DNA of 64,000 bases, taken from a virus. The stretch's first letter is position 1, and the number at the start of each line of letters is the position of its first letter. The translations under genes were made by a program, and so were the position numbers. This document shows positions 26,235 to 58,961 of this stretch, in pieces. Under the pieces are notes generated by a model. It saw only the letters and a list, made by a program, of their open reading frames with translations, did not search any database and was not told the origin of the DNA. The stretch covers positions 32,531-96,530 of the IMG/VR virus record IMGVR_UViG_3300031951_011359; one strand, 5' to 3'.

Positions 26235-27779
26235 TCACTTACCAGGAAGTGCTTTTACCCCAAGTTTCTTATTGCGAGCAGCATCATTTTGTCTTGCTTT
26301 TTGAAGTGCTTGTTGTGCTTTTACAGCATCATGCTTCTTGTATGCACCTGCAAACATAGTTCTTCCAATTCTTTCTAATGGATTAGAAGAAGTTTTAGCA
26401 AGAGATTGAGCACTTGGCCCTGCCTTATAAACTGCTTTACCATCCTTAAACGCAAGATGTCCTGCTGTTGATTGCCCACCTCTTTGAACTACACCAGTTT
26501 TAGCAAGTTGAACAGTTTTTCTTTGTGATCCAGAACCAGTTGACATAAATGCAGGACCACCTGGTTTTTTCTGACTAAATGATGTTTGTCCACCAATACC
26601 TTTAATTGCAGTTCCTGCTTGCTTTTGACGATTTGCTGTTGCCATTGCTTTTCTTTCAACCGCATTAGCACCAGCAACAACATCAAATGCCTTAGATGCT
26701 GCCATTGCAGCACCGGTTCCTGCTGCAAGAGATCCTACTGGAGTAAGTGGAGCGCCTGCTGCTGCACCTAAAGCACCAGCACCACCAACTACAGCAGCTT
26801 TAAGTCCTGATCTCAACCAACCAGAACCTTTTGCTCTTTCATCAGCAACATCAAGTGCTGCTGCTGCAGGTCCAAGAAGTTTTCCACCGATTCTTCCAGC
26901 TCGTTTAAGTCCTGATGGAATTTTAATTTTTGGTCCAGTAGGTGGTTTTCCTCCAGTTTGTCCAACCGCAGGAAGTGCTGGTGGTTTTCCTCCAGAACCT
27001 CCAGAAGATGTTCTGGGTGTAGACGCTTTATCATATGCACCTCTCATCATAGCTTCTGGGGGTGCCTGTGGATTAGTTCCACGAGTTGCTAATTTGCCGG
27101 CAGGTTGCTTGGCATCGTATGCTGCTGCTCTTGCTTCTTTTGCTGCTGCTCTGTTTCTTCGCTCAGCTGCTTCAAGTTCTGGAGTAAATTCTCGCCTACC
27201 ACGACTACTAGTTGATCCTGAAGCAGGTAAAGCAAGTCTTGAAGGAGTTCCAGAAAGTGTTCTATTTCCATAAGGAACTCTACTTGAAGGTGGTTCTGGA
27301 GTTCCATATTTTTTTGGCGGGTTTCCAGGAAACTGTTGCCAAGCATCAGCAGCAGCTCCTGACGGTTTTCTTGCAGGACTTGCTACTGTAGTTGTTTTTC
27401 CTTGAGGACTTACTTCTGGTTGAGTTGTTTGAGATGCAATTTTATTAGTTTGCGAAACTTCTGGTGCTGCATTTGCCGATGCTCTTGCTCTTGCACTTCT
27501 AATTGCAGGAGCTCCTGCAGATCCTCGCAATGGTTGTCTCTGTCTCCCTAAAGCAGAAGGACCACCTAATCTTTGCTTGCTTCTGTTTGGTAGACTATTA
27601 TATGTATCTCTATCTAATCTATCATCCAATCTTTTTAGTGGATCATTATTACCTAAAGCAACTGATCCTGCAAGAGGGGTAGTTGCAGCTGCTAATGCTG
27701 CTGCAGCTTCAAGATCTCTTTTCTTTTTTTCATCTTCATTCAAATATGACTCTTGTAAAAACTGACTAAAAGACTTCAT
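26235..27779 (-). CDS. Late low-complexity protein with capsid-targeting-like N-terminus
   Basis: 514 residues. Starts MKSFSQFLQES, close to the T4 internal-protein targeting peptide (MKTYQEFIAE as I recall it), with LQE fitting the gp21 protease rule (L/I)xE. Then a disordered Arg/Ala/Pro/Ser-rich stretch (about 50-280), a Gly/Ala hydrophobic region (about 315-365) and a basic C-terminus with GHLAFKDGKAVYKAG. A DNA-associated internal head protein is a reasonable inference. Confidence 0.75.
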   Translation of the reverse strand: MKSFSQFLQESYLNEDEKKKRDLEAAAALAAATTPLAGSVALGNNDPLKRLDDRLDRDTYNSLPNRSKQRLGGPSALGRQRQPLRGSAGAPAIRSARARASANAAPEVSQTNKIASQTTQPEVSPQGKTTTVASPARKPSGAAADAWQQFPGNPPKKYGTPEPPSSRVPYGNRTLSGTPSRLALPASGSTSSRGRREFTPELEAAERRNRAAAKEARAAAYDAKQPAGKLATRGTNPQAPPEAMMRGAYDKASTPRTSSGGSGGKPPALPAVGQTGGKPPTGPKIKIPSGLKRAGRIGGKLLGPAAAALDVADERAKGSGWLRSGLKAAVVGGAGALGAAAGAPLTPVGSLAAGTGAAMAASKAFDVVAGANAVERKAMATANRQKQAGTAIKGIGGQTSFSQKKPGGPAFMSTGSGSQRKTVQLAKTGVVQRGGQSTAGHLAFKDGKAVYKAGPSAQSLAKTSSNPLERIGRTMFAGAYKKHDAVKAQQALQKARQNDAARNKKLGVKALPGK

Positions 27780-27856: not shown

Positions 27857-28936
27857 TCACGCACCTCTTACTTGTGAAGATGCTCCAGAACTACCCTTTT
27901 TTTCTTGCTCAATCTTTTTTCTCTCATCCTCACGCACTTTTAAAGTTGCTCTTCTTTGCAGTTCTGCACCAGCCATATTAGCACCGAAAGAACCATAAGC
28001 TTCCACAATACTTTGTCTCCATTCTTCACTCATATTTGCCATAATGACTGCTGCTGCTTCTTCAGTTTCAGCATAACCTTCGTCAATTAGATAACCTTGA
28101 ACGATATCGAATAGGTCTAAGTCCATATTCAATCTGCGCTGTCTAATTTGCTGTTGAAGATTTGGTTTTGATGTAGTAGCAGCAGGAGCAGGAGTTGTTG
28201 CCGCAGCAGGAGCAGATGTTGTAGGTCTAGTTGCAAGTGCTCCAGTACCAGTCAAGTTTGCACCTGTTGCTCTAAGTTGCTGTGCTTGTCTAAGTTCAGC
28301 AGAAGTTGGAGTTCTTCTTTCAATACCACCGACTAATGGTTTACCTGTTGGTCCTAGTTGTGGTTTAGGAGCAGGTGCAGAAGCAGGTCTTGTAGATGTT
28401 TGTACTGCAGGTCTTGCAGGTGCAGAAGCAGGTGCTTGTGTTGCAGGTCTTGCTGGTGCTTGCACTACAGGTCTCGTAGGTGCTGGTTGTCCAGGTCTCT
28501 GGAAAATAGGAGACATTCCTGGTTGAACTGGTTTACCTTGAATATTAAAACCACCAGGACCAATTGTAAGTCCACGAAGATTTTGTGCAGATGCAGGTCT
28601 TGTGGATGCTTGTGCCTTTTGTCTTTGAAGATATTCACCAGTAGTAGAAACTCTTCTATTTGCTTCTACTCCACCAATTCCTTGACGCATCAATTGTTGA
28701 ACTTTTGCTTTTCCACCACCGGCATCAAATGCAGTTAATTCATTCAAATATTCTTCATACATATCTTCCCAAGTATATTCACTGAGGTCATAACCTTCTT
28801 CTACAAGTGAATTTACCCAGTTCTCAAAGTCCTCTTGAACTTGCTCTTCAGTCAGTTCAACCTCTTCTTGAGGAGCATAAACATTATTATATGCTTCCAT
28901 CATATTAAAAGCATCAGTTCCAGTAATTCTAGACAT
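27857..28936 (-). CDS. Late low-complexity protein with EAYxxVY and EGYA modules
   Basis: 359 residues. MMEAYNNVYA at about 12-21; WVNSLVEEGYDLSEYTWEDM at about 42-61; a Pro/Ala/Thr/Arg-rich disordered centre; then LFDIVQGYLIDEGYAETEEA and IMANMSEEW at about 275-305. These modules recur in three other proteins here. Late promoter and terminators on both sides. Likely structural or prohead-internal; function unknown. Confidence 0.75.
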   Translation of the reverse strand: MSRITGTDAFNMMEAYNNVYAPQEEVELTEEQVQEDFENWVNSLVEEGYDLSEYTWEDMYEEYLNELTAFDAGGGKAKVQQLMRQGIGGVEANRRVSTTGEYLQRQKAQASTRPASAQNLRGLTIGPGGFNIQGKPVQPGMSPIFQRPGQPAPTRPVVQAPARPATQAPASAPARPAVQTSTRPASAPAPKPQLGPTGKPLVGGIERRTPTSAELRQAQQLRATGANLTGTGALATRPTTSAPAAATTPAPAATTSKPNLQQQIRQRRLNMDLDLFDIVQGYLIDEGYAETEEAAAVIMANMSEEWRQSIVEAYGSFGANMAGAELQRRATLKVREDERKKIEQEKKGSSGASSQVRGA

Positions 28937-36427: not shown

Positions 36428-37738
36428 TTATTCAGGAGAAACCATTACAATAGGATTTTTTGCTCCTCTATATCTTGCACCAATTTTTGCAATACTCATT
36501 GCAGTTGGAACAGCACGAGCATCCATTTTTTCATCCTTCTTAAGATTCATTTTTTCAGCATCATCATTTTCACACTCAGATGCTTCCTTCATTGCTTGCT
36601 TACGAATTGTAGCAAAATAAACTTTCTTTCCTTTTTCTGCACCATATTGCTGTTGCATACTTGCCTTCATTCCAGAAGGATCATACTTCTTTTTTAACTT
36701 TTTTTCTTTTGTTTTCTCAGATTTATTCATCTTTTTTTCTTGAAGTATTCCAAGAAATTTTGAGTATCCAGTTTCAAGGATAACTTCACCATAAAGTTCA
36801 GTATGTGCTAAAACAGTATTTGATGGATTTACAACAACCTTATTTTTTACTTTTGCTGGAAGAATATCAATTTGAGTTGCATTTGCATCAGGATTATCAT
36901 ATTCTGGGGCATCAGTTTGAGGCAAATTTGCCATTCTTGACACTTCACCGATGAATTCTTCTTTTACGTTTGATGTATCTTTACCATCAGGAACTCCACC
37001 TCTTTTACGTTGGATTGCATTATGAACTGAACCACGATATTCTTTAGCGCCACTTTCAATTTTACCATCACCATCATAATCTCTCTTTGCTTTTCCTCCA
37101 CCTAAAGCAGAAGCAGTTTGCTCTCCTTTTTTCTTTTCACCTTCATATGGAGTTCCATACTCAGTCATTTCAACTTCAAGACCTTTTGATCTAAGTTGGC
37201 TAATTTTTTCACGATTGGCATATCTTACATAAGTTACATTACTTTTTTTATCAGTAACTCTTACTTTGTATTTTTTACCTTCGCTTGTATTATATTTGTT
37301 AAAATGTGCCTTTTCTTCCAAATCATATTTAAGTTGATCTAGATCAACTACCTCATTTTTCTTTTCTACAAACACTTTATAGAGTGCTTTTGCCATCAAA
37401 TCTGAAGCAGATACTTTCATATCCATTTCAAAATTTTCTGCCTGAGTTCCATCTTTACCAAAAAGTTTTTGTTTTACTGCCGATTTTTCTGCTTCACTCA
37501 GGCCACTATGTTGCATATATTCAGCATATGCAGTTTGTAGTGTTTTATTTTCTCTTCTACTTCTTAGACGAATATCAGAGGCAGCTTGACTTATTCTTTC
37601 CTCCTCCGTTTTTTCTACACCACTCTTTGGTTTGTTATTACCTGCAGATGGTTTATTTGCTCCTGGTTTTGAAGGAGAAGACATTTGTGCTTGTGGATGC
37701 TTTCTTGCAGGAAGATCTTCAGCAATATGCTTTTTCAT
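36428..37738 (-). CDS. Late basic protein with EF-hand-like loop
   Basis: 436 residues, Lys-rich throughout. KRDYDGDGKIESGAKEYRG at about 218-236 resembles a calcium-binding DxDxDG loop, two residues longer than a canonical EF hand. A GKKVYFATIRKQAMKEASE block lies near the C-terminus. Late box GATAAATA is 38 bases upstream. Probably a virion or internal head protein. Confidence 0.72.
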   Translation of the reverse strand: MKKHIAEDLPARKHPQAQMSSPSKPGANKPSAGNNKPKSGVEKTEEERISQAASDIRLRSRRENKTLQTAYAEYMQHSGLSEAEKSAVKQKLFGKDGTQAENFEMDMKVSASDLMAKALYKVFVEKKNEVVDLDQLKYDLEEKAHFNKYNTSEGKKYKVRVTDKKSNVTYVRYANREKISQLRSKGLEVEMTEYGTPYEGEKKKGEQTASALGGGKAKRDYDGDGKIESGAKEYRGSVHNAIQRKRGGVPDGKDTSNVKEEFIGEVSRMANLPQTDAPEYDNPDANATQIDILPAKVKNKVVVNPSNTVLAHTELYGEVILETGYSKFLGILQEKKMNKSEKTKEKKLKKKYDPSGMKASMQQQYGAEKGKKVYFATIRKQAMKEASECENDDAEKMNLKKDEKMDARAVPTAMSIAKIGARYRGAKNPIVMVSPE

Positions 37739-37747
37739 GAGAACAAT

Positions 37748-39082
37748 TTAACGTTTTACTTTTTTCCTATTTTTATTTATCAAATTAATACCATAAGGTT
37801 TTCCACCACTTTCAAGATTTTTAGCACCAACTCCAATAACACCAGGAGTCATCATTGCAGCATATCTAAAAGCACCTAAAGTTCCAACTAACGTATTAGG
37901 TTTTCCTGGAAGTCGCATCATCTTATCCATTTGCTTTTCAGAGTAAGATTCTTTGACATCTTTAATCCAAGATTTAAACATCATCCCATTCTCAGTTACA
38001 CAAATGAGATAATTAGTTCCTCTACGAATAATTTTACCATTCAATCCAGTATTTAAATTTTCAACAAAGGTTCCAACTTTAAAAATACTTTCATCAATAT
38101 AATTTTCTCTTAAAGATTTTTGATCAAATTTTGGAGCAATTTCCCAAGTATTATATCCTTCTTGCTGAATTTCTTGAATACCCATTCCTTGACGAACTAA
38201 ATCAAAAAGTTCAAGTGCTTGTTTATTTCTAACTCCTTTTGGTAAAGCGGAACGGAAAGTCATAAAATCTCCCTCCGCTGCAGCAAGACGTGACCTTGAT
38301 GCAGATACTCCTTCTACACCTTTATTACTATCAGGATCCCTATCACCTGCAGAAAGAACATCAATCACATCAAACTGATATAGTTGTCCATTATAATCGT
38401 TTGATAATCTTTCAAATTCTTTGACTCGATCTGCACCACCAACAATCCTTACGTTGCTGTATCCGTCATTATGTGCTTTTTTAAGCACATCAAAAATGGT
38501 TCTGTAATTGACATCATTGACAATTCTCTCACTATGGTCAGGGAACATCCGCCTCATGTATGAAATCTTAGTATCAGGATCTAGAGGATTTTTCTTTTTA
38601 TCCTGACTACGAGAAGGGACAATGATATAATCACCACCATCCTCCATTGCTGCCATTGCTGCAGTATCCATCAATTGTTGATGTCCAATGGTAGGAGGAT
38701 TGAAACGACCAAAAGCAACAGTCAGAGTCCCTTTTGTTTTAGGAACGGGTGGCGGTGTTGCTACTGGTGCTTCTTCAGGTGCAGGTTGTTGATCCACTGC
38801 CTGCTGGTCCATAGGCACCTGTTCTTGAGGAGCAGGAGCAGAGGGTGCTGGGGCAGCAGATCCAAGAGGGATATTTTTTTCAAATTCTCCTTGCTTAGGA
38901 TCCTTTCCACCGATCACTTGTCGCTTGTTGAAATACTTCAATTGACCACTCACGGTCTTTGCCTCAAATTCACCAGTGGCCCTATTATACCACCCTCCGT
39001 GCCCATCGCCAACAAGTCCAAGACGTTTTGCCTGAACTGATGCGGAGGTTGCCTCTGTAATGAATTGGGAAAATGTTTTCAT
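37748..39082 (-). CDS. Nucleotidyltransferase (NMNAT-like) with capsid-targeting-like N-terminus
   Basis: 444 residues. The start MKTFSQFITEA is close to the T4 capsid-targeting peptide, with ITE|A fitting the gp21 cleavage rule. A short domain (about 22-60), a Pro/Ala/Gln linker (about 75-115), then a nucleotidyltransferase domain: FGRFNPPTIGH (124-134) is the HxGH class motif and VSASRSR (259-265) matches the second (I/V)SxSxxR motif. IVGGADRVKEF fits the nucleotide-binding strand. The C-terminal part (about 300-444) is unassigned. Late promoter upstream. An NAD-type or other NMP-transfer reaction is inferred. Confidence 0.78.
   Translation of the reverse strand: MKTFSQFITEATSASVQAKRLGLVGDGHGGWYNRATGEFEAKTVSGQLKYFNKRQVIGGKDPKQGEFEKNIPLGSAAPAPSAPAPQEQVPMDQQAVDQQPAPEEAPVATPPPVPKTKGTLTVAFGRFNPPTIGHQQLMDTAAMAAMEDGGDYIIVPSRSQDKKKNPLDPDTKISYMRRMFPDHSERIVNDVNYRTIFDVLKKAHNDGYSNVRIVGGADRVKEFERLSNDYNGQLYQFDVIDVLSAGDRDPDSNKGVEGVSASRSRLAAAEGDFMTFRSALPKGVRNKQALELFDLVRQGMGIQEIQQEGYNTWEIAPKFDQKSLRENYIDESIFKVGTFVENLNTGLNGKIIRRGTNYLICVTENGMMFKSWIKDVKESYSEKQMDKMMRLPGKPNTLVGTLGAFRYAAMMTPGVIGVGAKNLESGGKPYGINLINKNRKKVKR
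37776..37783 (-). promoter_or_regulatory. Late-type GATAAATA box
   Basis: Minus-strand GATAAATA inside the 3' end of the nucleotidyltransferase gene, 38 bases before the EF-hand-like gene. Confidence 0.55.
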
Positions 39083-53729: not shown

Positions 53730-54770
53730 TCAACGCATTGATGGGTTTCTTTCAGCAGCACTCATTGATCCATGATCTCTAGGATCATCATCATCTTCTC
53801 TGTCTCTCATTTGCTTTTGTCTTTGCTTTTTCATTTTTAAATTTTTCTGAGTCTCCAAATCAGCATCAGAAGTTTGTTGTGCTCTTGCAGTTGAAGATCC
53901 TCTTTTTCCTTTTGCCTGCAACTTATAAAAAAGGCGAGTTGCTTCATCAAGATCTTCTTTACTCATGTTTGCCATGAGAACTAAAGCATCTTGATTGGTA
54001 TCAGCGTAACCTTCAGCAACTAAGTATTCAAGAAGGTAATCAAAAAGGTCTACTTCCTCTCTTACACCTGCAGATGGTCCGCCAGATCTATATCCAGCAA
54101 CTCTCTGCGATAATGCTGATTTTTCTCTTGCCTTTCTTTGTGCTTCATCTTGTGGTTTGGTTGTCAATCCAGAAGTAACAGAACGATCTAAACCTCTGAC
54201 AGTTGATGTTCCACTAGACATGCCAGTAGGTCTAGTTCCAACACCACCACCAAAATATCCAGGAGAAATAGGAGTTCTTGGTCCAGATGGTGCTGCCACA
54301 GTTGGTTTCTCTGGTGCTGCCATAGATCCTGGACCTTTTGGCATATCAACCATTAAAGGATTAGGAGTTTTTGTTAATTGTGGTTTTTGTGAAACAACTG
54401 GAGGTGTTGTTGTTTTATCTACTTTTGGTTTTTGTGCTGCAGGCGCAGTTACTTTTGGTTTTTCTCTTGGTGTTCTTTTTGGTCTTTCAGTTCTACCATC
54501 ATCTCTTGTCTTTGGTGAAGGAAACTTTGGAATATTTACTCTAGGAATAGAATTATCAGGTTCAGGAAGGGTTAGTCCTGGAAAACGAGGAACTACTGAA
54601 CGAACACTATATGGATTAATTAAACTTTTTACACCATATTGAGTATCAGCAGCATGTGCCTCATCAATGAGATCAGATGAATTATTATACTCGTTTGCTT
54701 TCTCTCTCAATTCATCATTATAAACTGCCTCATACATAAGGCGAATATCTTGAACCTGTTGGGAATTCAT
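53730..54770 (-). CDS. Late low-complexity protein with YEAVY and EGYA modules
   Basis: 346 residues. IRLMYEAVYNDELREKANEY at about 10-29; a Pro/Lys/Thr-rich disordered centre; LFDYLLEYLVAEGYADTNQD and VLMANMSKEDLDE at about 245-280; basic C-terminus. Modules shared with other late proteins. AATAAATA about 25 bases upstream may be a late box. It separates the AAA+ and VWA genes. Confidence 0.72.
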   Translation of the reverse strand: MNSQQVQDIRLMYEAVYNDELREKANEYNNSSDLIDEAHAADTQYGVKSLINPYSVRSVVPRFPGLTLPEPDNSIPRVNIPKFPSPKTRDDGRTERPKRTPREKPKVTAPAAQKPKVDKTTTPPVVSQKPQLTKTPNPLMVDMPKGPGSMAAPEKPTVAAPSGPRTPISPGYFGGGVGTRPTGMSSGTSTVRGLDRSVTSGLTTKPQDEAQRKAREKSALSQRVAGYRSGGPSAGVREEVDLFDYLLEYLVAEGYADTNQDALVLMANMSKEDLDEATRLFYKLQAKGKRGSSTARAQQTSDADLETQKNLKMKKQRQKQMRDREDDDDPRDHGSMSAAERNPSMR

Positions 54771-57023: not shown

Positions 57024-58940
57024 TTAATTTAGTTTTTTAGGTTTTGGTTTGGTAGATGAAGGTGGTTTGCCTTGAAGAGCACTCTGTATTTTACCTGGAA
57101 GTTCATCAACAAATTTTACAACAGATGCTGGCATTTGGGGAGCACTTCCACCAGTAACTGCTTCAACAATATTTTGTTTCCAATCTTCACTCATTGCACC
57201 AGCGATTGCTTGTGCTGACTTTTCATCAGAAGCAAAACCCTCACCAAGAAGATAATCTACAAGAAGTTCTTCACGAACTGAGCGAATATTTTCATATTCA
57301 GATCCACTACCTCTACTGCCAGTCATTCTATGTTGAGAAAAAGTATCCCCTACTCTTTCATCTCCACGCTTCTTTCTTTCTACTCTTCTTTTCTTTTCAA
57401 ATTCATGTCTTTTTTTAGGACTCATTTTTTTCTTTGGTATTGGAAGTCCCGTAATACCTTCTTCAGTTTCGTCTTTTGCTTCGTAAATTGCGTTTTCTTT
57501 CATTTTAGTAGTGTACTCCTTTCCACCATAAGTGAATGTTGTTGGAACTGGATCTCCAATTCTCTTTGCCTCCTTTTCCTTTCTTTTTGCCTCTCTGAAT
57601 GCATCATCAAATGTAGAACCAATCTTACGAGAACCAACTTTTAAGCGACTACGAATTTGTCCTGTTGGTTTATCTACAGATGGTGTATCAATAGTATTAT
57701 AAACATTAGTTTTTATATTCTTTCTCAATTCAGCATCACTTCTACGCTTTTCACCCTTCATTGCTTGATCAACTGCTACAGTTCCAGCAGCTGCTGTACC
57801 AACAATTCCCGCAGTTTTTAGATTTCTTGATAAAGAAGAAATTGGAGATTTTGACGAACCACCAGAAGAAGATGATCCTGTTGCATATTTTTCTAAACCT
57901 GGATACTTCATATTTCCAGTTTTTTCTGTGGGTGATAAAGTAGCGCGAACAGTTTGTGTCAAACCACTACCTTTAGATGATTTTCCACCCCCAGAAGTAG
58001 GTGTCTTTGAAGTTGGTTTAGGTGCTCTTGTACTAACTAATGCTCCTGCTGGTTGTGCTACCTTTGGATCTTTAGGTAATGCTTCTGGTTTAAAGGTTGG
58101 CTTAGGTGCTTTTGTACGAACTAATGCTCCTGGAGGTTCGGCAGACTTTGTTGCCTTAGGAAGTGCTTCTGGTTTAAAAGTTGGTTTAGGTGCTCTTGTA
58201 GAAACTAACGCTCCACCAGGTTCTCCCGTTGTTTTTGCTTTAGGAAGTGCTTCTGGTTTAAAGGTTGGTTTAGGTGCTTTTGTACGAACCAATGCTCCTG
58301 CAGGTTCAGCAGACTTTGTTGCCTTAGGAAGTGCTTCTGGTTTAAAAGTTGGTTTAGGTGCCTTTACACTTGCAGATGTTTTTCCTGCCGAAGGAAGTGC
58401 TGGTCTGGATGGTGTACTGGGTAATGCCTTAGTAGAAGATACTTTAGGACCAGAAGGTTTAGATGGATTTATACGACTGCTAGGTGCTGTTGGTTCATTC
58501 CAAACATTAGTTGTAATTTTATTTGCACCTTTTGGAGCAGTTCTAACAGAAGTTGCTTTTACTGTTCTAACTATTGGTGCTGGAGATGGCGTAGACTTTG
58601 CAATAGTTTTTGCAATTTTAGCAGTCGATACTGGATTTAATGCGGTACTAGTAATAAGAGAATCAGTAGCTGCAGTTCTTAATGGTGTTTTTGCTCTTTT
58701 TGCAATAAATCCCGCTACTGCCTTTGCACCCTTAATTAAAGATCCTAGACCTGCCTCACTAATAATTTCTGCCATGATCTGTTTAGATTCTTCTTCAGAG
58801 TATCCTTCATTTAGAAGATACTCTAAAACCTGATCATAGATATCAATTTCTTCTTGAACATCATTTTCCGAATGTACATCAATATGCTCATAAACTTTTT
58901 GATATGCCTCTACAAAATCTCTATATTTTTTATCGTACAT
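57024..58940 (-). CDS. Late low-complexity protein with tandem 28-residue repeats
   Basis: About 638 residues from ATG 58940. FVEAYQKVYEH at about 9-19 and DIYDQVLEYLLNEGYSEEES at about 33-52; a basic Ala/Pro/Thr centre with four full 28-residue repeats (core APKPTFKPEALPK) at about 195-310; a charged C-terminal half with VDYLLGEGFASDEKSA and AGAMSEDWKQNIVEA. TATAAATA upstream. Probably a virion or internal head protein. Confidence 0.74.
   Translation of the reverse strand: MYDKKYRDFVEAYQKVYEHIDVHSENDVQEEIDIYDQVLEYLLNEGYSEEESKQIMAEIISEAGLGSLIKGAKAVAGFIAKRAKTPLRTAATDSLITSTALNPVSTAKIAKTIAKSTPSPAPIVRTVKATSVRTAPKGANKITTNVWNEPTAPSSRINPSKPSGPKVSSTKALPSTPSRPALPSAGKTSASVKAPKPTFKPEALPKATKSAEPAGALVRTKAPKPTFKPEALPKAKTTGEPGGALVSTRAPKPTFKPEALPKATKSAEPPGALVRTKAPKPTFKPEALPKDPKVAQPAGALVSTRAPKPTSKTPTSGGGKSSKGSGLTQTVRATLSPTEKTGNMKYPGLEKYATGSSSSGGSSKSPISSLSRNLKTAGIVGTAAAGTVAVDQAMKGEKRRSDAELRKNIKTNVYNTIDTPSVDKPTGQIRSRLKVGSRKIGSTFDDAFREAKRKEKEAKRIGDPVPTTFTYGGKEYTTKMKENAIYEAKDETEEGITGLPIPKKKMSPKKRHEFEKKRRVERKKRGDERVGDTFSQHRMTGSRGSGSEYENIRSVREELLVDYLLGEGFASDEKSAQAIAGAMSEDWKQNIVEAVTGGSAPQMPASVVKFVDELPGKIQSALQGKPPSSTKPKPKKLN
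58017..58358 (-). repeat. 84-bp in-frame tandem repeat
   Basis: The same coding unit recurs at exactly 84-base spacing (marker positions 58017, 58101, 58185, 58269, 58353). Each unit encodes 28 residues with core APKPTFKPEALPK followed by (A/G)GALV(R/S)T. Confidence 0.9.
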
Positions 58941-58961
58941 CTTCAAAAGATACTTTTTAGA

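What the first reader, a model, noticed from the sequence alone, without database searches (positions are those of the whole stretch)
37748..39082. Nucleotidyltransferase fused to a capsid-packaging-like tag
FGRFNPPTIGH and VSASRSR give an NMNAT/cytidylyltransferase-type active site behind MKTFSQFITEA and a Pro/Ala linker. An enzyme that makes or uses NAD-type nucleotides, delivered with the DNA, could act on the host at once, in the way T4 injects Alt ADP-ribosyltransferase. I know of no described cyanophage example.
Basis: inference. Interest (0 to 1): 0.78.

Follow-up and report, generated by a model that had tools for sequence, protein, structure and literature searches.

The report
Cyanophage-packaged nucleotidyltransferase with capsid-targeting tag
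A common cyanophage enzyme related to those that make NAD and coenzyme A begins with a T4-style "pack me into the capsid" tag, and its relatives have already been found in virus particles, so it is probably injected into the host cell with the viral DNA.

Summary
It has a T4-type capsid-targeting tag (MKTFSQFITE|A), a ~36-aa module, a Pro/Ala linker, a nucleotidyltransferase domain with both active-site motifs, and a KOW/SH3-like C-terminus. The predicted fold is nearest NadD, CoaD, NMNAT and RibF.

The gene is not new. It is cyanophage core gene T4-GC190, found in S-SM1 virions in 2010 and later in S-SZBM1, S-SCSM1 and S-CREM2 virions. A virion-borne NMNAT acting on host NAD was proposed in 2022-23.

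I found no paper linking tag and packaging. F4, F7, I/L8, E10 and A11 are nearly fixed in 40 non-redundant relatives while positions 3, 5, 6 and 9 vary, matching residues mapped in T4. The same tag starts the SAM lyase and kinase in S-CREM2 virions. The module recurs in that kinase and a third virion protein, suggesting a shared delivery cassette.

The substrate is unresolved: only the generic CTP_transf_like model passes its cutoff, and no NAD-pathway partner was found. Some relatives (P-HM2, ACG-2014e, jumbo phages) lack the tag.

The parts
37748..39082 (-). T4-GC190-type protein, 444 aa: tag + small module + linker + nucleotidyltransferase + KOW/SH3-like domain
   Evidence: open frame; 86% identical to S-SRM01 and 57% to P-SSM2_194 (= T4-GC190)
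39053..39082 (-). capsid-targeting tag MKTFSQFITE (residues 1-10); predicted prohead-protease cut between E10 and A11
   Evidence: T4 ipII/ipIII begin MKTYQEFIAE|A; T4 residues 4 and 7 target, 8 and 10 are for processing; F4, F7, I/L8, E10, A11 fixed in 39-40 of 40 relatives
38933..39040 (-). ~36-aa beta module (residues 15-50) shared with other virion-packaged cyanophage proteins
   Evidence: four strands, pLDDT about 80; HMM built from it finds the kinase and phrog_3561 proteins, 1e-12 to 1e-17
38732..38923 (-). Pro/Ala/Gln-rich linker (residues 54-117)
   Evidence: mostly pLDDT below 50; variable in length between relatives
38183..38731 (-). nucleotidyltransferase domain (residues 118-300)
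   Evidence: pLDDT mostly about 90; Foldseek best NadD 1.9e-5, CoaD 4.1e-5
38681..38710 (-). active-site motif 1 GRFNPPTIGH (residues 125-134, (T/H)xGH)
   Evidence: G125, R126, N128, P129 and H134 invariant in 41 sequences
38288..38305 (-). active-site motif 2 SASRSR (residues 260-265, [I/V]S(x)(S/T)xxR type)
   Evidence: S260 and R265 invariant in 41 sequences
37949..38071 (-). KOW/SH3-like C-terminal domain (residues 338-378)
   Evidence: strands at pLDDT about 85; matches an RNA polymerase II elongation-complex chain over 53 columns at rmsd 1.7; a separate ORF in ACG-2014e and P-HM2
36428..37738 (-). downstream neighbour, PHROG 3326, unknown function; the gene in the same place in S-SZBM1 (139) is in the virion
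26235..27779 (-). second tagged ORF in the window, MKSFSQFLQES, 514 aa; predicted also to be packaged
   Evidence: S-SRM01 counterpart begins MKSFSQFLEES

Best explanation
The protein is a minor internal head protein of a T4-like cyanophage and an active nucleotidyltransferase. Its first ten residues act like the capsid-targeting sequence of T4 internal proteins: they bind the prohead core, and the gp21-type prohead protease then cuts after E10, leaving the enzyme in the capsid. It leaves with the DNA and acts in the host at the start of infection. The domain most likely transfers a nucleotidyl group, probably AMP from ATP, to a phosphate-bearing acceptor; NMN or NaMN (making NAD) is the leading but unproven acceptor. 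The N-terminal module and KOW-like domain probably help packaging or partner binding. Shown here: the sequence and its conservation. Shown by others: virion association of orthologues. Inferred: cleavage, injection, activity, acceptor.
For: Orthologues in purified virions: S-SM1 (T4-GC190), S-SZBM1 (the only protein there classed as an enzyme), S-CREM2, S-SCSM1. Tag conservation matches the T4 positions shown to matter. Major capsid proteins of S-SZBM1 and S-CREM2 keep LTEA at the T4 gp23 LTEA position, so protease specificity looks unchanged. In S-SM1 the only ORF with the strict tag is this gene, and it is in the virion. In S-CREM2 4 of 5 tagged proteins are in the virion against 48 of 213 others, p = 0.012. 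Catalytic motifs are invariant across divergent relatives. Predicted fold is closest to adenylyltransferases.
Against: Some relatives have the bare domain without a tag: P-HM2, MED4-213, ACG-2014e and jumbo phages. In S-SZBM1 only 1 of 3 tagged proteins was detected, and the S-PM2 orthologue was not detected. My tag pattern was widened by one residue after seeing S-SZBM1. Two virion papers warn of carry-over through CsCl. No NAD-specific model reaches its cutoff; no NAD partner gene was found.
Confidence: 0.66

Rival explanations
1. Intracellular auxiliary enzyme: it works in the infected cell, for example supplying NAD or another cofactor, and its presence in virion preparations is carry-over; the tag is only a conserved N-terminal helix.
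For: Authors of two virion studies raise carry-over. The gene sits among replication and nucleotide genes such as gp41, mazG and nrdA/B. Untagged relatives exist.
Against: Detected in four virion proteomes read here, while intracellular phage proteins such as ssDNA-binding protein, UvsX and DNA polymerase are absent from the two tables I could read. A conserved helix need not reproduce the T4 pattern F4, F7, I/L8, E10, A11 with free positions between. Other enzymes with the tag are also in virions.
Confidence: 0.2
2. The acceptor is not NMN/NaMN: the enzyme adenylylates (or cytidylylates) another phosphate or carboxylate compound, a tRNA or a protein, so it is a takeover enzyme of another kind. 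(This rival concerns the substrate only and is compatible with packaging.)
For: The best sequence match in the PDB is the UPF0348 protein MJ0951, not NMNAT (0.0012; 0.0043). CoaD and RibF fit nearly as well as NadD. Family signatures KNPL and GxDR are not signatures I know from characterised acceptor classes.
Against: All these matches are weak; NAD-type models are the commonest sub-threshold specific hits (TIGR00482 in 37 and TIGR01526 in 31 of 41 members).
Confidence: 0.4
3. Packaged but catalytically dead: the domain serves as a structural or scaffolding element of the internal core.
For: Neighbouring gene products are Lys/Ala-rich, and one of them is a virion protein; copy number looks low (emPAI 0.26 against 2.83 for the portal).
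Against: Key active-site residues of both motifs are invariant, unlike the linker.
Confidence: 0.1

Closest known systems
T4-GC190 / PHROG 395 'cytidyltransferase' of cyanophages (P-SSM2_194, SSM1_190, SCREM2_gp154)
   Same: Same gene in the same neighbourhood (after gp41/mazG, before gp61/nrdA in P-SSM2 and S-SM1); same domains; found in virions
   Different: Nothing essential; the window copy is 86% identical to S-SRM01. The papers I read do not mention the tag
T4 internal proteins IPII/IPIII and Alt (capsid-targeting sequence, gp21 cleavage)
   Same: N-terminal tag alike at residues 4, 7, 8 and 10, with A at 11; predicted injected enzyme, as Alt
   Different: Unrelated enzyme; a second shared module follows the tag; cleavage and ejection not demonstrated
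NMNAT/NaMNAT (NadD, NadM, NadR), PPAT (CoaD), FAD synthetase (RibF)
   Same: Rossmann-like fold, (T/H)xGH and S-x-S-x-x-R motifs
   Different: Specific family models stay far below cutoffs; distinct KNPL and GxDR signatures; extra domains on both sides
UPF0348 protein MJ0951 (PDB 3gmi; to my knowledge the TmcAL/HIGH_NTase1 group)
   Same: Best sequence match in the PDB, over both motifs
   Different: E only 0.001-0.004; no evidence of a tRNA role
Virion-associated kinase and SAM lyase of S-CREM2
   Same: Same type of N-terminal tag; the kinase also has two copies of the module
   Different: Different catalytic domains

Membership tests
T4-GC190 / PHROG 395 | sequence similarity along the domain, KNPL and GxDR signatures | tested here: met
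   3.7e-100 to PHROG 395; 57% to P-SSM2_194 over the whole length; signatures
T4-GC190 / PHROG 395 | gene order between gp41/mazG and gp61/nrdA | tested here: met
   window ORFs against S-SRM01 and P-SSM2
T4-type capsid-targeted internal protein | N-terminal tag with targeting residues 4 and 7 and processing residues 8 and 10 | tested here: met
   MKTFSQFITE|A against MKTYQEFIAE|A; conservation
T4-type capsid-targeted internal protein | a gp21-type protease with the same cut motif in related phages | tested here: met
   gp21 genes annotated in S-SZBM1, S-CREM2 and S-SM1; LTEA kept at the gp23 site in S-SZBM1 and S-CREM2. Not checked in the window's own partial record
T4-type capsid-targeted internal protein | found inside the particle and cut after E10 | not testable with these tools
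   orthologues in virions; mature N-terminus not reported in what I read
NMNAT/NaMNAT | Rossmann-like fold with both catalytic motifs | tested here: met
NMNAT/NaMNAT | score above curated cutoff of a NadD/NadM/NadR model | tested here: not met
   TIGR01526 20.5 against 341 bits; TIGR00482 16.8 against 112
NMNAT/NaMNAT | turns NMN or NaMN plus ATP into NAD or NaAD | not testable with these tools
   needs an enzyme assay
Cytidylyltransferase (database label) | match to a CTP-specific family (TagD, CCT) | tested here: not met
   only the generic CTP_transf_like and cyt_tran_rel models match; no CTP-specific NCBIfam model among the hits

The most novel reading that the evidence does not exclude
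T4-like cyanophages have a modular delivery system: a T4-type capsid tag, often followed by a shared ~36-aa module, is fitted to a changing set of enzymes (nucleotidyltransferase, kinase, SAM lyase, the phrog_3561 protein annotated as a Cas9/HNH-type nuclease) so that they are packaged and injected as a takeover and anti-defence kit; the N-terminus would then predict the packaged proteins from genome sequence.
Probability: 0.5. Interest if true: 0.68.

Novelty: new variant of a known kind. Interest (0 to 1): 0.5.

Why it matters
Cyanophage virion studies keep finding enzymes and cannot say whether they are cargo or contamination. A tag that matches T4's functional residues gives a sequence-based reason to call them cargo, predicts which further proteins are packaged (such as the ORF at 26235-27779), and makes the idea of NAD manipulation at the moment of injection directly testable. 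If the module marks cargo too, the injected protein set could be read from genomes.

Tried and rejected
Plus-strand reading: stops. 'Cytidyltransferase' as a substrate claim: no CTP-specific model. The name 'ribonucleotide reductase alpha subunit' for relatives: it belongs to a stand-alone KOW-like ORF (PHROG 4808; ACG-2014e gp154) and is a wrong label. 'NAD synthetase' as a pathway partner: a SegE endonuclease. NAMPT/NAPRT partner: none in the record. Fusion of the window's neighbour with the enzyme in S-RIM2: no similarity to the window neighbour, a weak match to S-SZBM1_139. Strict T4 spacing of the tag against the S-SZBM1 virion list: no enrichment; the enzyme's tag is one residue shorter there, so the pattern was widened, and the S-SZBM1 list stayed non-significant. 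An alignment with jumbo-phage domains was too diverse for a collection scan. I could not choose NMNAT over PPAT, RibF or the UPF0348 type.

Full report
Observation. The frame at window:37748-39082 runs on the minus strand and encodes 444 aa; the plus strand is broken. Pfam CTP_transf_like matches above its cutoff, PHROG 395 at 3.7e-100. The window is part of a 96.5-kb virus record, close to Synechococcus phage S-SRM01 (86% for this protein).

It is a known gene. 559 phage records hold a relative. P-SSM2_194 is labelled T4-GC190. Sullivan et al. 2010 (PMC3037559) list T4-GC190, a 'putative citidylyltransferase', as a cyanophage core gene and detected it in S-SM1 virions. It was also found in virions of S-SZBM1 (PMC9146016), S-CREM2 (PMC10665884) and S-SCSM1 (PMC9602691); the latter two papers also cite an NMNAT-like protein in S-CBWM1 virions. 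These two papers discuss a virion-carried NMNAT that changes host NAD, and warn of carry-over.

The tag. T4 ipII and ipIII begin MKTYQEFIAE|A (read from the T4 record). In T4, residues 4 and 7 matter for targeting, 8 and 10 for processing (PMC9026906). The window protein begins MKTFSQFITE|A. I fetched relatives with scans whose search peptides, except in the P0002 scan that gave one locus, lay outside the N-terminus: 238 of 239 carry the tag; the exception is a bare domain. In 40 non-redundant tagged members F4 is kept in 39 (Y in one), F7, E10 and A11 in all, I/L8 in 39, while positions 3, 5, 6 and 9 vary. S-SZBM1-like members have the tag one residue shorter (MRFRQFIIE|A). The major capsid proteins of S-SZBM1 and S-CREM2 keep LTEA at the T4 gp23 LTEA position (E52 and E56), so the protease motif looks the same.

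Tag and virion content. With the pattern M.{1,2}[FYW]..[FYW][ILVFM].E, S-CREM2 has five tagged proteins against 0.195 expected and S-SZBM1 three against 0.13. In S-CREM2 four of the five are in the virion: SAM lyase gp6, kinase gp14, gp136 and this enzyme (Fisher p = 0.012). In S-SZBM1 one of three is (not significant). In S-SM1 the only such ORF is this gene, and it is in the virion. The pattern was widened by one residue after I saw S-SZBM1, so these numbers are supportive, not decisive. The S-CRM01 kinase begins MISFDQFLSE; a kinase in S-CRM01 virions is cited in PMC10665884. The S-N03 kinase lacks a clear tag.

A shared module. A profile built only from residues 14-53 of nucleotidyltransferase relatives finds, among all S-CREM2 proteins, just gp12 (phrog_3561, annotated 'Cas9/Csn1' but with no Pfam match) and kinase gp14 (two copies), both in virions; it also finds the S-N03 kinase, ACG-2014f gp187 (phrog_3561), S-CRM01 g128 and, weaker, the S-CRM01 kinase. 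No S-SZBM1 protein matches. I found no paper that describes either the tag or the module in cyanophages, within an open-access library only.

The enzyme. AlphaFold2 on 41 relatives gives a helix for the tag region, four short strands for the module (pLDDT about 80), a disordered linker, a domain at about 90 and a C-terminal beta domain at about 85. Foldseek hits are NadD 1.9e-5, CoaD 4.1e-5, human NMNAT and FAD synthetase; the C-terminal part matches a KOW/SH3-like barrel (the name of that fold is my reading of the hit). Invariant residues include G125, R126, N128, P129, H134, R158, D161, K164-L167, G216, R219, S260 and R265. Specific NAD models match weakly and far below cutoff; the best PDB sequence match is the UPF0348 protein MJ0951 at 0.0012. 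The acceptor is thus open. No NAPRT/NAMPT lies in the record, and the nearby 'NAD synthetase' of relatives is a SegE endonuclease.

Counter-evidence. P-HM2, MED4-213 and ACG-2014e have an untagged bare domain with the KOW-like domain in the next gene; RaK2 and Deifobo also have the bare domain. Packaging by this tag is therefore not universal. Among 24 divergent relatives on contigs binned with other marine microbes 13 have a tag-like segment before the domain, two of them with apparent GTG starts. The S-PM2 orthologue was not seen in its virion.

Verdict. A well-known packaged cyanophage protein for which the tag gives a credible packaging route. The new parts are the match of conservation to T4's functional tag residues and the module shared by unrelated packaged proteins. 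Substrate, cleavage and injection remain untested.

Noticed in passing
window:26235-27779 (-): Second tagged ORF, MKSFSQFLQES, 514 aa, no PHROG or Pfam match; predicted internal head protein. S-SRM01 counterpart has nearly the same N-terminus.
   Followed up: partly
window:24731-26191, 27857-28936, 53730-54770, 57024-58946 (-): Several large unknown ORFs start with another recurrent pattern (MYEAVYN, LYEEI, EAYNNVY, EAYQKVYE); three of the four match PHROG 3708 segments. Possibly another class of virion proteins.
   Followed up: no
window:11501-13018 (-): 505-aa OprB-type porin with an SLH domain (Pfam 5e-10 and 1.5e-7), a cyanobacterial outer-membrane type, within a phage record; no PHROG match.
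   Followed up: no
window:24222-24647 (+): SegE GIY-YIG endonuclease (7.5e-39); its relatives in S-SRM01 and S-SM1 are recorded as 'NAD synthetase', a wrong label.
   Followed up: yes
L258:3837-5081 (-), S-CREM2 gp6: Virion-detected SAM lyase (PF23780, 2.3e-19) with a capsid tag MKDFDSFLEE: a candidate injected anti-restriction enzyme.
   Followed up: partly
L090:2767-5832, S-RIM2 R1_1999: The enzyme is read as one 1021-aa frame with a Lys/Ala-rich C-terminal half that resembles a separate gene in S-SM1 (SSM1_191); a near-identical IMG/VR copy (L097) stops at 385 aa.
   Followed up: partly
PHROG 4808, PHROG 764: Labels 'ribonucleotide reductase alpha subunit' and 'cytidyltransferase' sit on a KOW-like fragment and on the Lys/Ala-rich neighbour, and look like transferred annotation errors.
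   Followed up: partly
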